Shown piece by piece: positions 544-3,804 of a DNA stretch of 7,261 nt; within the stretch, counting starts at the first letter, position 1; each line of letters begins with the position of its first letter. The position numbers and the translations under genes were made by a program. This DNA comes from Deltaproteobacteria bacterium (lineage in GTDB: Bacteria; Desulfobacterota; BSN033; UBA1163): assembly GCA_016875255.1 (NCBI GenBank), contig VGRU01000187.1:1-7261 (forward strand), given 5' to 3'. The notes beneath the pieces are model-generated. The model was not told the origin of the DNA. It saw nothing but the letters and a program-made list of their open reading frames with translations, and ran no database searches.

Positions 544-879
544 TTAACAACAACCTGAACGCTGAGAGTCACAACAGGATTGGGATTGATTTTTTGAAGG
601 TTCAATATAACAGCAGGACTCTTTTTTCCTGCCGATTTTCGAGTTGATCACAGCGGCGGCACAACCCACGCCCGACTGGACGTTTAATGCCTCAGCAGGG
701 CAGTTTCGGGAACAGGCCCCGCATTCCATACAGGCGTCCCGGTCGACGATCTCGGCCGTCCCATTTGTCAAACTCAAGACGGCATGAGGACAGACGAGCA
801 AACACATCCCGCAACCCACACACTTTTTCTCGTCAAGCTTCAAGGTGACCACATCTTTCAAATAGATCAACTGATTCAT
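544..879 (-). CDS. hgcB: HgcB, ferredoxin-like partner of the mercury methylase
   Basis: A 111-residue 2[4Fe-4S] ferredoxin required together with HgcA for mercury methylation. It is thought to reduce the HgcA corrinoid and may pass Hg(II) to it. Two cluster motifs are visible: CVGCGMCLLVCP (C20-C30) and CMECGACSRNCP (C50-C60). Cys73 in GVGCAAA matches the position of a cysteine I recall as essential in the Desulfovibrio protein. The C-terminal tail carries three adjacent Cys pairs (89-90, 102-103, 110-111), where one pair is the usual family feature. The start is supported by AAGGAG 8 nt upstream of the ATG. It is the last gene of the operon, 96 nt after hgcA. Without hgcA beside it, it could only be called a ferredoxin; with it the assignment is firm. 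Confidence 0.94.
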   Translation of the reverse strand: MNQLIYLKDVVTLKLDEKKCVGCGMCLLVCPHAVLSLTNGTAEIVDRDACMECGACSRNCPAEALNVQSGVGCAAAVINSKIGRKKESCCYIEPSKNQSQSCCDSQRSGCC

Positions 880-975: not shown

Positions 976-2124
976 TTATGTGGTGAAGATGGATCCAAGC
1001 CAGAGAATAAAGCCGATGATGCCTGCCCCGATCTGAAATGGCACAGCCCATCGCATCTCTTTTCGCACTCCGGAAAGGGACGTATAGGTCGAGGCGCCTG
1101 TAAAGTTCATCGCCATAAAAGCAGAAAGCGCAGGGATGATCAGGAACCAGGCTAACATTTCAAAATGTCCTGCTAATGTGATCCCATCACTCCATCGAAA
1201 AAAAACAAAAAGAAGAGCAACGAATAACCCCACAGAAACTCCTTTAATGGAAAAAGCCCGACCTGGCAGCCAGGGCAGTAAGGCGGGTGTTAACACGGCC
1301 CCGGATAGAATGGCAATCAGAATGGCTAAAGCGGAGAAGAGACCCTGATGTAAGGCATTCGCCCAGCCTTCCCCTGCCCTTCCGAAAAAAGTGATCAGAA
1401 ACAGAATGGCCATGAGAATAAGCCCTGCCTTTAGGGCCGCGACAAGTTCAATAGGGATAAGTGCTATCCTCTCCCCGATTGGAAAAGTCTTGATTCTCAT
1501 CTGCGGTGTCGCCTTCAATCCTGCATCGAGAAAAGCCGGAAGGTCTTCTGCCCGAATGGGACCATAAATGACTTTGAACCCCGATAATTTCTTCACCTCA
1601 TGAGCAGCCACACCAGGGCCGCCTAACTGGGGCAGAATCAATTCCCGGTGCGAGACAATCTGCATCAGGCCACTTGAGTCGATTCGGCTTACAAGTTCCA
1701 ATGTTCCAAAGGTCCCCTTCCCTGCCGCACACCAGACATTGATCCCCTTCGTATCAAGGACGAGAATCCACACATTCCGGCCGGGCAAAGCTACACGGAG
1801 CCTGTCAAAGCTCATCTTGTAATTGGCTGTAACCATGACCGGAGATTTCTCATCTGGCGTTCCCAGCGCATAAAGACCGGGCTCAACAACATAATGCATG
1901 CGGCCGATTCCCCATCGTGCCTTGAAGCTCCCCAGATGATCGCTCCGGGTGAGAGAAGATAAAACCTGTGGAACCAAACCCACCGACGTTTGAAGGGCTC
2001 CGCTCACAAAAGGCTGTTTCAGATCGGGAAGGCCCACCTGGGCCTTGACGACCGGAGGTCAACAGCTTGTGTTTTGAGAACAATCGCTCTGTTGAGCCGA
2101 AGCGTAACATTTTGATTCATCCAT
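976..2124 (-). CDS. hgcA: HgcA, corrinoid mercury methylase, probable selenoprotein (in-frame TGA at codon 22)
   Basis: HgcA transfers a methyl group from its corrinoid cofactor to Hg(II), giving methylmercury. It has a cytoplasmic corrinoid-binding domain with the family signature NVWCAAGKGTFGT (N129-T141); Cys132 is the expected axial cobalt ligand. About five membrane segments follow (roughly 233-247, 260-279, 293-310, 322-340 and 362-380), as in the family. Translation should start at ATG 2124, which follows a perfect AGGAGG by 5 nt. The frame then meets TGA at 2061-2059 and continues without another stop to 976, giving 382 residues. The N-terminal tail is Cys-rich (C6, C15, C21) and ends in Cys21-Sec22 followed by Pro-Pro. 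A SECIS-like hairpin lies just downstream. The alternative is the GTG at 2037 (353 residues), which lacks a good ribosome site. HgcA identity is very secure; selenocysteine is a strong inference. Confidence 0.93.
2029..2061 (-). promoter_or_regulatory. UGA selenocysteine codon and candidate bacterial SECIS hairpin in hgcA
   Basis: The TGA at 2061-2059 is followed on the coding strand by AAGGCCCAGGTGGGCCTT (2046-2029). This folds into a perfect 7-bp stem (AAGGCCC with GGGCCTT) closed by the tetraloop AGGU. The loop begins 19 nt after the TGA, close to the 18 nt of Escherichia coli fdhF and inside the 16-37 nt range I recall for bacterial SECIS models. The loop has G at its second position and contains GU, as expected for SelB recognition. 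There is no bulged U in the stem as in fdhF. The base after the UGA is C, a context favourable to readthrough. Confidence 0.75.
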
Positions 2125-2136
2125 TGTAACCTCCTA
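2125..2136 (-). promoter_or_regulatory. Shine-Dalgarno of hgcA overlapping the stop of the upstream gene
   Basis: AGGAGG (2135-2130) precedes the hgcA ATG at 2124 by 5 nt. It overlaps the TAG stop (2136-2134) of the AbrB-like gene, which suggests translational coupling. This site decides the hgcA start: a ribosome loading here reads straight into the TGA at codon 22. Confidence 0.88.
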
Positions 2137-2406
2137 TATCTCTTTCATCATGGGGCCGAGGAAATCTCTCACCCGTTCCCCAAGGGAATCCGCTTTGATC
2201 AAATAGAGACAGCAAATCTCCCCTTCTTTATCCCAACTGATGAGAGCCAATTTGTCACCTGCGCGAATCTTCGCTTTATCCCTCAAATCTTTGGGAAGCA
2301 CCATCTGCCCCCGCTCATCGACGCTGATGATCGACTCGACCTTGCAACAAGACATCCCCTTATCCACGGATCCGCAAAAGGATACTTTCTGACTCTTCTT
2401 TGACAT
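2134..2406 (-). CDS. AbrB/SpoVT-family protein of the hgcAB operon (HgcAB-associated protein)
   Basis: A 90-residue protein with one swapped-hairpin AbrB/MazE/SpoVT DNA-binding domain at about residues 23-70 (VESIISVDERGQMVLPKDLR, then KIRAGDKLALISW). I recall small AbrB-like proteins being annotated as HgcAB-associated in hgc loci; the layout here, 9 nt before hgcA, agrees. It most likely regulates the operon and could sense metal. Two adjacent cysteine pairs stand out, C20-C21 just before the domain and C65-C66 at its end, plus C11. The C-terminal helix ends GPMMKEI. The ATG at 2406 is preferred because GGGAGG lies 7 nt upstream; a TTG at 2439 would add 11 residues but has no ribosome site. 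It could also be an antitoxin-like regulator, but no toxin gene is adjacent. Confidence 0.85.
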   Translation of the reverse strand: MSKKSQKVSFCGSVDKGMSCCKVESIISVDERGQMVLPKDLRDKAKIRAGDKLALISWDKEGEICCLYLIKADSLGERVRDFLGPMMKEI

Positions 2407-2453
2407 GGCGTCGCCTCCCGTTACAGCTTTTTCTGACAAAACAGATTAATCAG

Positions 2454-2477
2454 TAATATCAGCTTTTCCTGATATTA
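2454..2477. promoter_or_regulatory. Inverted repeat over the hgc operon -10 box, candidate operator
   Basis: Perfect 9-bp arms TAATATCAG (2454-2462) and CTGATATTA (2469-2477) flank a 6-bp spacer. The right arm, read on the minus strand, contains the proposed -10 box TAATAT. A repressor bound here would block the promoter. The shape resembles operators of ArsR-type repressors, but no arsR gene is in the window; the AbrB-like product of the first gene is the nearest candidate ligand. Confidence 0.65.
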
Positions 2478-2500
2478 AGCCATTCCAAACCATCTGTCAA
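2472..2500 (-). promoter_or_regulatory. Sigma-70-like promoter of the hgc operon
   Basis: On the minus strand TTGACA (2500-2495), a perfect -35 box, is followed after 17 nt by TAATAT (2477-2472), a 4-of-6 match to the -10 consensus. The start would fall near 2465, giving a leader of about 60 nt before the AbrB-like gene at 2406. Confidence 0.65.
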
Positions 2501-2650
2501 GTTTCCCAGCTAAAAATTCAAGCAGGGGGTTTGCCGTGACAACACGACAAATTGTCAATTCTGGGCAAAAATTTGGCACTACATCGACTATTTTAAAACC
2601 CTAAATTTTAACAATATCTTTAAATTTCAATATGTTACGATTTAAGCGGG

Positions 2651-2667
2651 TTGGCACGGCAATTGCT
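2651..2667 (+). promoter_or_regulatory. Sigma-54 promoter of the HTH-DUF2914 gene
   Basis: TTGGCACG, 4 nt, TTGCT matches the RpoN consensus (TGGCACG-N4-TTGCW) at every fixed position. Transcription would start near 2677, leaving a leader of about 67 nt before the ATG at 2744. Such promoters need an enhancer-binding ATPase activator, none of which is encoded here. Confidence 0.8.
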
Positions 2668-2743
2668 AACTTATCTATTGGTGAAGAATCCATCTTGGGT
2701 TTGCATCTATTTAAAATTTTAAAACCCTTCTTCAGAATAGGTT

Positions 2744-3601
2744 ATGGCAGAGGCTCCTGGAAGAATTTTGAAAAAAGAAAGAGAGATGCGGAACATCCCG
2801 CTGGAGAAAATCTGTTCCTTTACCAAAATAAAAGAGCACCATCTCGAGGCCATTGAAGAAGACAGATACGATCATCTTCCTCCTCCTCTTTATGTCAAAG
2901 GATACCTGAAGGTCTACGCTAAATACCTTGCCCTCGATGAGAAAGATATTCTTTACCTATATGAAAATTATCTAAAAAGCCTTCTTCCACCGGAACCTCC
3001 CGTGCCGCTGCCGGAGGCCTCACCCCCGAAAAAGAATAACAGATCATTACTCTTACCTTCTCTCATCATCGCAGCGTTTCTCCTCTCATCGCTCTTTATT
3101 GCCTACCTTATGCACGACCCCAAAGAAGAGAAACCCACATCTTCGACACTCTTTCCTGTATCGCCCGCTACAGCCACTCAGCGAGAGGAAGGAAAGCAGA
3201 CCCATGAGGTAGCACAACCAAAAGAGATACAAGAGTTAGAAAGCAAGGAAGTGGAAACACGGCTGACTTCCGCCTTTGAAATTCTTGAGGCGGGCATGGG
3301 AACAAGCATTGATAAAGAGAATGACCGGCAGTTCCTCACGGGAAATGCTTCGGAATTTACCTCCAACCATCAAAGGGGCTACTTCTTCACAAGAATCAAG
3401 GCTTCCAGAATAGGGAAAATCGCCCATGTCTGGTTATTGGAAGAAAAAGAGTTCCATCGAATCGAAATGGATGTCAAGCCTCCTGCCTGGTCCGTTTATA
3501 GTTACCTGACCTTCCGGCCGCAACACACCGGAAACTGGAAGGCCGAGGCAAGAGAGGGGGATCAGGTCCTGACAAGCCTCAACTTCAAGGTCCTTCAATA
3601 A
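2744..3601 (+). CDS. RodZ-like HTH membrane protein with C-terminal DUF2914 domain
   Basis: A 285-residue single-pass membrane protein. Residues about 6-75 form a RodZ-type helix-turn-helix (GRILKKEREMRNIPLEKI, then EEDRYDHLPPPLYVKGYLKVY). A proline-rich linker (82-96) leads to one membrane helix at about 101-123, and a low-complexity charged linker follows. Residues about 210-284 look like DUF2914 (YFFTRI, IAHVWLLEEKEFHRIEM, WSVYSYLTF, GNWKAEA, LNFKVLQ), predicted to lie outside the membrane. RodZ links the MreB cytoskeleton to cell shape, but this combination with DUF2914 has no established role that I know of; DNA binding or an envelope role are both possible. The ATG at 2744 starts the conserved domain at once; the ribosome site is weak (AATAGG). 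It is transcribed away from the hgc operon, apparently from a sigma-54 promoter, and appears monocistronic. Confidence 0.85.
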   Translation: MAEAPGRILKKEREMRNIPLEKICSFTKIKEHHLEAIEEDRYDHLPPPLYVKGYLKVYAKYLALDEKDILYLYENYLKSLLPPEPPVPLPEASPPKKNNRSLLLPSLIIAAFLLSSLFIAYLMHDPKEEKPTSSTLFPVSPATATQREEGKQTHEVAQPKEIQELESKEVETRLTSAFEILEAGMGTSIDKENDRQFLTGNASEFTSNHQRGYFFTRIKASRIGKIAHVWLLEEKEFHRIEMDVKPPAWSVYSYLTFRPQHTGNWKAEAREGDQVLTSLNFKVLQ

Positions 3602-3609
3602 ACCCATCA

Positions 3610-3804
3610 GTTGCAAAAAACAATATCGAAACCGGGTGGGGGTGCTGTAAAAGCCTTGCAGCGGCACCTTTGGAAGTTGGCTACATGCGTTTTTAGGCAA
3701 AACCGGGACTTCACCTAAAGTGAAATCCTCTGTAATCCTACCTTTTCGAAAAATCCGCGATTGCAAGGGTTTGGAAGTACCCCTGCCCGGGTTCGATATT
3801 GCAA
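3610..3804. repeat. Long imperfect inverted repeat (MITE-like) in a convergent gap
   Basis: The left arm begins GTTGCAA and continues CAATATCGAAACCGGGTG (3621-3638). The right arm ends, in reverse complement, with CAATATCGAACCCGGGCAG and GTTGCAA. Similarity goes on inward through GGGGTRCT and CCTTGCA, so each arm is about 50 bp with several mismatches and a 7-nt insertion at the left tip. Because of this, frames read outward on either strand give matching peptides (QGF-STP-R-RYC), which are repeat artefacts rather than genes. No transposase is present. The element fills most of the 269-bp gap between two converging genes and could act as a bidirectional terminator. A smaller hairpin (TTCAC / GTGAA, 3710-3724) lies in its middle. 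Confidence 0.65.

What the first reader, a model, noticed from the sequence alone, without database searches (positions are those of the whole stretch)
2059..2124. HgcA appears to be a selenoprotein with a Cys-Sec pair in its N-terminal tail
Seen: a perfect AGGAGG and ATG at 2124 open a frame that meets one TGA at codon 22 and then stays open to the HgcA stop at 976. The residues between the TGA and the next possible start (GTG 2037) are in frame with HgcA, and the GTG has no good ribosome site. The TGA follows a Cys codon and is followed by C. Known: mercury binds selenol even more strongly than thiol, and HgcA works on Hg(II). Inference: Sec22 with Cys21 binds or relays mercury, or protects the corrinoid site. 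I do not know of a described selenocysteine HgcA. Ordinary gene callers would hide it by truncating the gene.
Basis: partly seen in the sequence, partly recalled or inferred. Interest (0 to 1): 0.95.

Follow-up and report, generated by a model that had tools for sequence, protein, structure and literature searches.

The report
Mercury-methylating HgcA with a selenocysteine tail
This bacterial gene for HgcA, half of the protein pair that makes methylmercury, contains a TGA codon, kept in dozens of relatives, that is predicted to be read as selenocysteine; selenium forms of HgcA were already in print, so this is one more member of a known kind, and what the selenium does there is untested.

Summary
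Window 2124..976 (minus) is one frame: ATG with AGGAGG, Cys21, TGA22, then an HgcA that scores 465.9 bits against a cut-off of 275. The TGA is very likely selenocysteine. Of 81 sequences (80 relatives and the window) 30 have an in-frame TGA at this site, mostly after Cys, and the other two frames show no such excess. In a second set of 395 genomes, 39 of 126 with a match run through a TGA there and none through TAA or TAG. A hairpin with compensatory changes follows the TGA; the annotated GTG start lies inside it. A genome whose locus is 93.5% identical keeps the TGA and has selA, selB and tRNA-Sec; the window's own genome is not held. Two relatives nested among Sec forms have Cys or Arg instead and keep the hairpin's remains. 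It is not new: a 2026 review tabulates HgcA as a selenoprotein with motif CU, citing Haft and Gwadz 2023. The model places the pair on a low-confidence, probably disordered tail. Mercury capture is the likeliest role, but it is inferred.

The parts
976..2124 (-). hgcA, full frame read through TGA22 (382 aa); the form gene callers give starts at GTG 2037 (353 aa)
   Evidence: NCBIfam NF040863 465.9 bits, cut-off 275
2130..2135 (-). AGGAGG ribosome site before ATG 2124
   Evidence: sequence
2059..2061 (-). TGA, predicted Sec22
2062..2064 (-). Cys21 codon (TGT), partner of Sec22
   Evidence: Cys before the TGA in 27 of 32 and 34 of 39
2029..2046 (-). SECIS-like hairpin AAGGCCC-AGGT-GGGCCTT, 12 nt after the TGA; holds the GTG 2037 start
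   Evidence: (-20.4 kcal/mol for 46 nt, z -2.85)
544..879 (-). hgcB, dicluster ferredoxin; GVGC (not GVGU) and three CC pairs in its C-terminal tail
   Evidence: NF040864 119.4 bits, cut-off 99
2134..2406 (-). hgcC (HgcAB-associated, AbrB-like), ends 9 nt before the hgcA ATG
   Evidence: NF040962 128.3 bits, cut-off 70

Best explanation
The window's hgcA has an in-frame TGA, followed by a conserved SECIS-like hairpin, that is very likely read as selenocysteine, giving HgcA a Cys21-Sec22 pair on a predicted flexible N-terminal tail that would most likely bind Hg(II) and hand it to the HgcAB active site. Shown by sequence: the frame, the TGA, its conservation, the hairpin and its covariation, and Cys pairs at the same site in other HgcA. 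Inferred: that SelB and tRNA-Sec of this organism insert Sec here (machinery seen in relatives only). Predicted: the tail is disordered. Inferred and untested: mercury binding and hand-over, by analogy with the C-terminal Cys pair of HgcB. I put Sec insertion at about 0.96 and the mercury-capture role at about 0.6 given insertion.
For: Sec insertion: TGA and hardly any other stop at one site in 30 of 81 sequences (after dropping L043 and L066) and in 39 of 126 matched genomes (five genomes are in both sets); frame control. The hairpin loop begins 16-22 nt after the TGA in 29 of 30 and after 19 nt in 20; the 30th, L008, was mis-anchored by the script and has the +19 hairpin by eye. Covariation on 26 sequences: 92.3% of cells paired, 5 of 6 pairs with changes on both sides, covariation 0.354 against a shuffled mean of 0.201 (0 of 500 as high); slid registers reach at most 0.239. 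selA over cut-off in 28 of 29 Sec genomes, selB in 26 of 29, tRNA-Sec at 65 bits or more in 24 of 29; each of the 29 has selA or selB. The nearest genome seen, G217, has all three. Probable losses with remains: L016 (CGA) and L004 (TGT) form a starred pair inside a starred clade whose other 7 rows have Sec, and still match the hairpin model at 26.5 and 23.2 bits. Role: residues 1-27 below pLDDT 50 while the core is well modelled with five long helices; 34 of 50 non-Sec relatives (masked L023 left out) have CC or CxC in the tail.
Against: No genome is held for the window, so its own sel genes are unseen. No protein-level evidence of Sec here. The outermost of the 6 counted hairpin pairs is unpaired in 12 of 26; four Sec loci with 5-6 nt loops were left out of that alignment and the model built from it finds none of them at E up to 1, and it finds 25 of the 39 TGA loci of the second set. 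The stretch from ATG to TGA differs from its nearest relative by 3 non-synonymous and 0 synonymous codons in 21, so that part of the tail shows no purifying selection. Sec is dispensable: Arg in L016, L090 and L112, Ser in P0027, no Cys or Sec in several relatives. Low pLDDT may also reflect a shallow, gappy alignment (33 rows). By residue numbering (Cys93 of strain ND132 against Cys132 here) the biochemically studied HgcA should begin after this tail and still methylates mercury; that is inference and ignores indels. No call tests mercury binding.
Confidence: 0.6

Rival explanations
1. Sec is inserted, but the Cys-Sec pair is a redox device: it would reduce or protect the corrinoid or the Cys ligand, or form a selenenyl-sulfide switch, without binding mercury itself.
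For: Vicinal Cys-Sec pairs are redox-active in other selenoproteins (recalled). Cys pairs replace it in relatives, which fits redox as well as metal binding.
Against: Sec has been replaced by Arg or Ser in some relatives; the tail is predicted loose; HgcB in the same operon ends in Cys pairs, and mutagenesis links the C-terminal Cys of HgcB to mercury methylation (PNAS 2024 passages).
Confidence: 0.3
2. The TGA is a true stop: a 21-residue leader peptide is made and ribosomes restart at GTG 2037 to make a 353-residue HgcA.
For: Database gene calls start after the site (117 of 120 listed); an AAGG precedes the GTG; the codons before the TGA show no purifying selection against the nearest relative.
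Against: No match runs through TAA or TAG and only 1 of 33 first stops is not TGA; Cys precedes the TGA (27 of 32, 34 of 39); the following hairpin covaries; relatives have sense codons, often Cys, in one unbroken frame; the GTG lies inside the hairpin.
Confidence: 0.03
3. Read error, decay or general reading of TGA as another amino acid.
For: The window's source genome is not held; L135 carries a second TGA that may be decay.
Against: The same codon in another 93.5%-identical assembly and in 62 further loci of the two sets; hgcA itself ends in TGA in several of these genomes, so TGA is an ordinary stop there.
Confidence: 0.01

Closest known systems
Selenoprotein form of HgcA, motif CU (Haft and Gwadz 2023, as tabulated in PMC13188914)
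   Same: Same family (NF040863), one Sec, directly after Cys (passages only).
   Different: I could not read the 2023 paper or compare with its example WP_250697417.1; the copy of the window's product in the protein database (P0002, 353 aa) lacks the tail.
HgcA of Pseudodesulfovibrio mercurii ND132
   Same: Corrinoid domain with a conserved Cys and a five-helix membrane domain (papers, passages).
   Different: By numbering it should lack the Cys-Sec tail (inference; its sequence was not fetched).
Selenoprotein form of HgcB, motif GVGU (same review)
   Same: Same operon and probably the same chemistry.
   Different: In the window this residue is Cys; so it is in 77 of the 80 HgcB matches among the 81 sequences, the other 3 not reaching the site.

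Membership tests
HgcA (NF040863) | Score above the curated cut-off | tested here: met
   465.9 bits against 275
HgcA (NF040863) | NVWCAAGK motif and a C-terminal domain of five long helices | tested here: met
   that the helices are membrane helices rests on the papers
HgcA (NF040863) | hgcB next to it | tested here: met
   NF040864 119.4 bits against 99
HgcA (NF040863) | Methylates mercury with HgcB | not testable with these tools
   no assay
Bacterial selenoprotein | In-frame TGA conserved across relatives, with Cys homologs at the site | tested here: met
Bacterial selenoprotein | SECIS hairpin just downstream, apical loop with G (features recalled) | tested here: met
   (loop G invariant in 26 of 26); four loci with 5-6 nt loops (L053, L054, L060, L067) left out of the alignment; no Rfam family matched
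Bacterial selenoprotein | selA, selB, selC and selD in the same genome | tested here: inconclusive
   window genome not held; selA, selB and tRNA-Sec in the 93.5%-identical relative G217; selD not searched
Bacterial selenoprotein | Selenium in the protein | not testable with these tools
   no protein data
CU-type HgcA of Haft and Gwadz 2023 | Sec directly after Cys, one Sec per protein | tested here: met
   against the table row
CU-type HgcA of Haft and Gwadz 2023 | Alignment with the published example protein | not tested
   paper not held

The most novel reading that the evidence does not exclude
The Cys-Sec tail is a swinging mercury arm: a disordered selenol-thiol claw that captures Hg(II) for HgcA as the C-terminal Cys pairs do for HgcB. 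Its claw has been rebuilt many times (CU, UC, CC, CxC, lost, or Sec turned into Arg or Ser), so mercury methylation comes in selenium-dependent and selenium-free forms set by single codon changes, and standard gene calls hide the selenium class.
Probability: 0.35. Interest if true: 0.7.

Novelty: new member of a known kind. Interest (0 to 1): 0.4.

Why it matters
The hgcAB pair is required for microbial mercury methylation (abstracts), and mercury binds selenium extremely tightly (recalled). If the selenol handles mercury, selenium supply and Sec-to-Cys exchanges would bear on how methylators work, and enzyme studies on a tail-less HgcA would miss one step. In practice, 117 of the 120 database proteins listed are annotated without the site, so surveys built on such calls would not see it.

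Tried and rejected
Rfam on 1700-2500 of the window gave only a chance match (sR24, 15.9 bits, gathering 36): no SECIS family matched. Mean folding energy of the 46 nt after the site separates Sec (30) from non-Sec loci (49) only weakly (-13.8 against -11.1 kcal/mol; Mann-Whitney p 0.009); the placed, covarying hairpin is the better evidence. Machinery contrast: selB over cut-off in 26 of 29 Sec genomes, 16 of 21 nearer non-Sec and 17 of 29 farther non-Sec; tRNA-Sec at 65 bits or more in 24 of 29, 18 of 21 and 18 of 29. It points the right way but is confounded by kinship and incomplete assemblies. Of the 50 non-Sec genomes 13 lack both by these marks (one of them, G047, has selB in two pieces); of the 29 Sec genomes 1 does (G027, which has selA and a selB fragment). 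selA was sought in the Sec genomes and G217 only. Sec in HgcB of the window: rejected (GVGC). A PDB relative for the tail: none; PDB matches start at residue 78. The 2008 GOS paper, apparently reference 61 of the review, showed no mention of this protein in its main text under my terms.

Full report
What is there. On the minus strand the window holds hgcC (2406-2134), hgcA (2124-976) and hgcB (879-544), all above NCBIfam cut-offs. The hgcA frame starts at an ATG 5 nt after AGGAGG, meets one TGA at codon 22, directly after Cys21, and then runs open to its stop. A gene caller would start at GTG 2037 and give 353 aa; the database copy of the window's product is that form (P0002). Of the 120 proteins listed in that search (the best of 7,998 scored), 117 start after the site; the three that reach it (P0027, P0071, P0073) have Ser, Cys and Cys there.

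Is the TGA selenocysteine? I fetched 80 relatives from genome contigs (the best 80 kept of at least 580) and read the frame upstream of the conserved core. With the window that makes 81 sequences. The first in-frame stop within 34 codons is TGA in 32, TAG in 1 and absent in 48; Cys precedes 27 of the 32 TGAs. I set L043 and L066 aside because their TGA lies before a later, likelier start, leaving 30 Sec loci. In 78 of the 81 the two other frames give 7 and 8 TGAs with 1 and 0 Cys-TGA, against 30 and 25 in frame. A second set, 395 genomes drawn from the phylum of the L001 genome, has 126 with a match; 39 run through a TGA and none through TAA or TAG, though some of the other 87 do not reach the site. 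I read all 39: the TGA stands 29-33 codons before the core in each, after Cys in 34. Five of these genomes are also in the first set, so the two sets hold 64 different TGA loci. I also looked at 31 loci of the second set without a TGA.

The hairpin. In the window AAGGCCC-AGGT-GGGCCTT begins 12 nt after the TGA. The loop begins 16-22 nt after the TGA in 29 of 30 Sec loci (19 nt in 20); the script mis-anchored L008, which has the +19 hairpin by eye. This is close to the spacing of known bacterial SECIS elements (recalled). For 26 loci with a 4-nt loop, 5 of 6 pairs show changes on both sides and the covariation score is reached by 0 of 500 shuffles; the best slid register is 0.239 against 0.354; the outermost pair is open in 12 of 26. 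L053, L054, L060 and L067 have 5-6 nt loops and were left out. A covariance model built on these 26 finds its training set and, at this site, L016 and L004 at 26.5 and 23.2 bits; it misses the four loci left out; off-site it gives L074 (20.1 bits, minus strand) and L017 (15.1 bits, minus strand), probably chance. In the second set it gives 27 matches at E up to 0.1: 25 of the 39 TGA loci, plus L090 and L112, which have Arg. The 14 missed loci form a different hairpin sequence at the same place in several cases (such as L124, L130, L132).

Gains and losses. On a tree of 80 cores (masked L023 left out) the Sec label needs at least 7 changes, 3 of them forced by well-supported branches. L004 (Cys-Cys) and L016 (Arg, CGA, with the Cys lost too) form a supported pair inside a supported clade whose other 7 rows have Sec, so they are most simply losses that keep the hairpin. 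L090 and L112 have AGA, another Arg. L070, L075, L098 and L102 have the order Sec-Cys; L070 and L102 lie in one genome, as hits of two searches. L017 and L027 have Thr, L087 Leu, L109 and L120 Gly before the TGA.

Machinery. No genome is held for the window. Of 29 Sec genomes, 28 have selA and 26 have selB over the cut-off and 24 have tRNA-Sec at 65 bits or more; each has selA or selB. Most non-Sec relatives have the machinery too, so this agrees with Sec without proving it. The genome nearest to the window, G217, is 93.5% identical over window 992-3602, has the same Cys-TGA, and has selA (626.9 bits), selB (368.4) and tRNA-Sec (76.5). selD was not searched.

How it likely works. AlphaFold2 gives a confident core with five long C-terminal helices, and residues 1-27, Sec22 included, below pLDDT 50, on an alignment of 33 rows. 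A vicinal Cys-Sec pair on a loose tail beside an enzyme that works on Hg(II) is most simply a mercury ligand that hands on its metal, as proposed for the C-terminal Cys pair of HgcB (PMC7305189 and PMC11588087, passages only). This step is inference. Sec has been replaced more than once, so the tail is an aid, not the catalyst. The codons before the TGA show no purifying selection against G217 (0 synonymous, 3 non-synonymous of 21), which fits a loose linker but gives no support for that part.

What is known. The 2026 review PMC13188914 (passages) lists HgcA as a selenoprotein with motif CU and HgcB with GVGU, citing Haft and Gwadz 2023, which I know only by its title in reference lists (not held). 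PMC11588087 (passages) repeats the point. The finding is therefore a new member of a known kind. Whether the covarying hairpin, the Arg replacements with hairpin remains and the reversed pairs are in print I cannot say, since the main paper could not be read.

Noticed in passing
L082 (Desulfacinum infernum genome), 520-609 and 1510-3615: A second selB-like gene near a tRNA-Sec-like tRNA with a GCA (Cys) anticodon (54.9 bits to RF01852). G029 has a matching pair of hits. It resembles recoding tRNA-Sec variants described in the literature (recalled).
   Followed up: partly
L081, 1639-1726: A similar divergent tRNA-Sec (TCA anticodon, 55.8 bits) beside a second selB-like hit, in a Sec-HgcA genome where selA was not found.
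   Followed up: partly
L013, hgcB downstream of hgcA: HgcB frame reads GVCC-TGA-VVEP where relatives read CCCVIEP: a possible Sec in the HgcB tail at a site other than GVGU, or a stop; this HgcB also has an odd stretch between its clusters.
   Followed up: no
L135, hgcA tail: Two in-frame TGAs, at the Sec site and 12 codons later, while the similar L136 has only the first; the second may be decay.
   Followed up: no
window 2029-2046 and Sec loci: The protein motif AQ(V/L)S after the Sec site is encoded by the hairpin and is missing from most Cys-type HgcA of the first set, so it is probably imposed by the RNA.
   Followed up: partly
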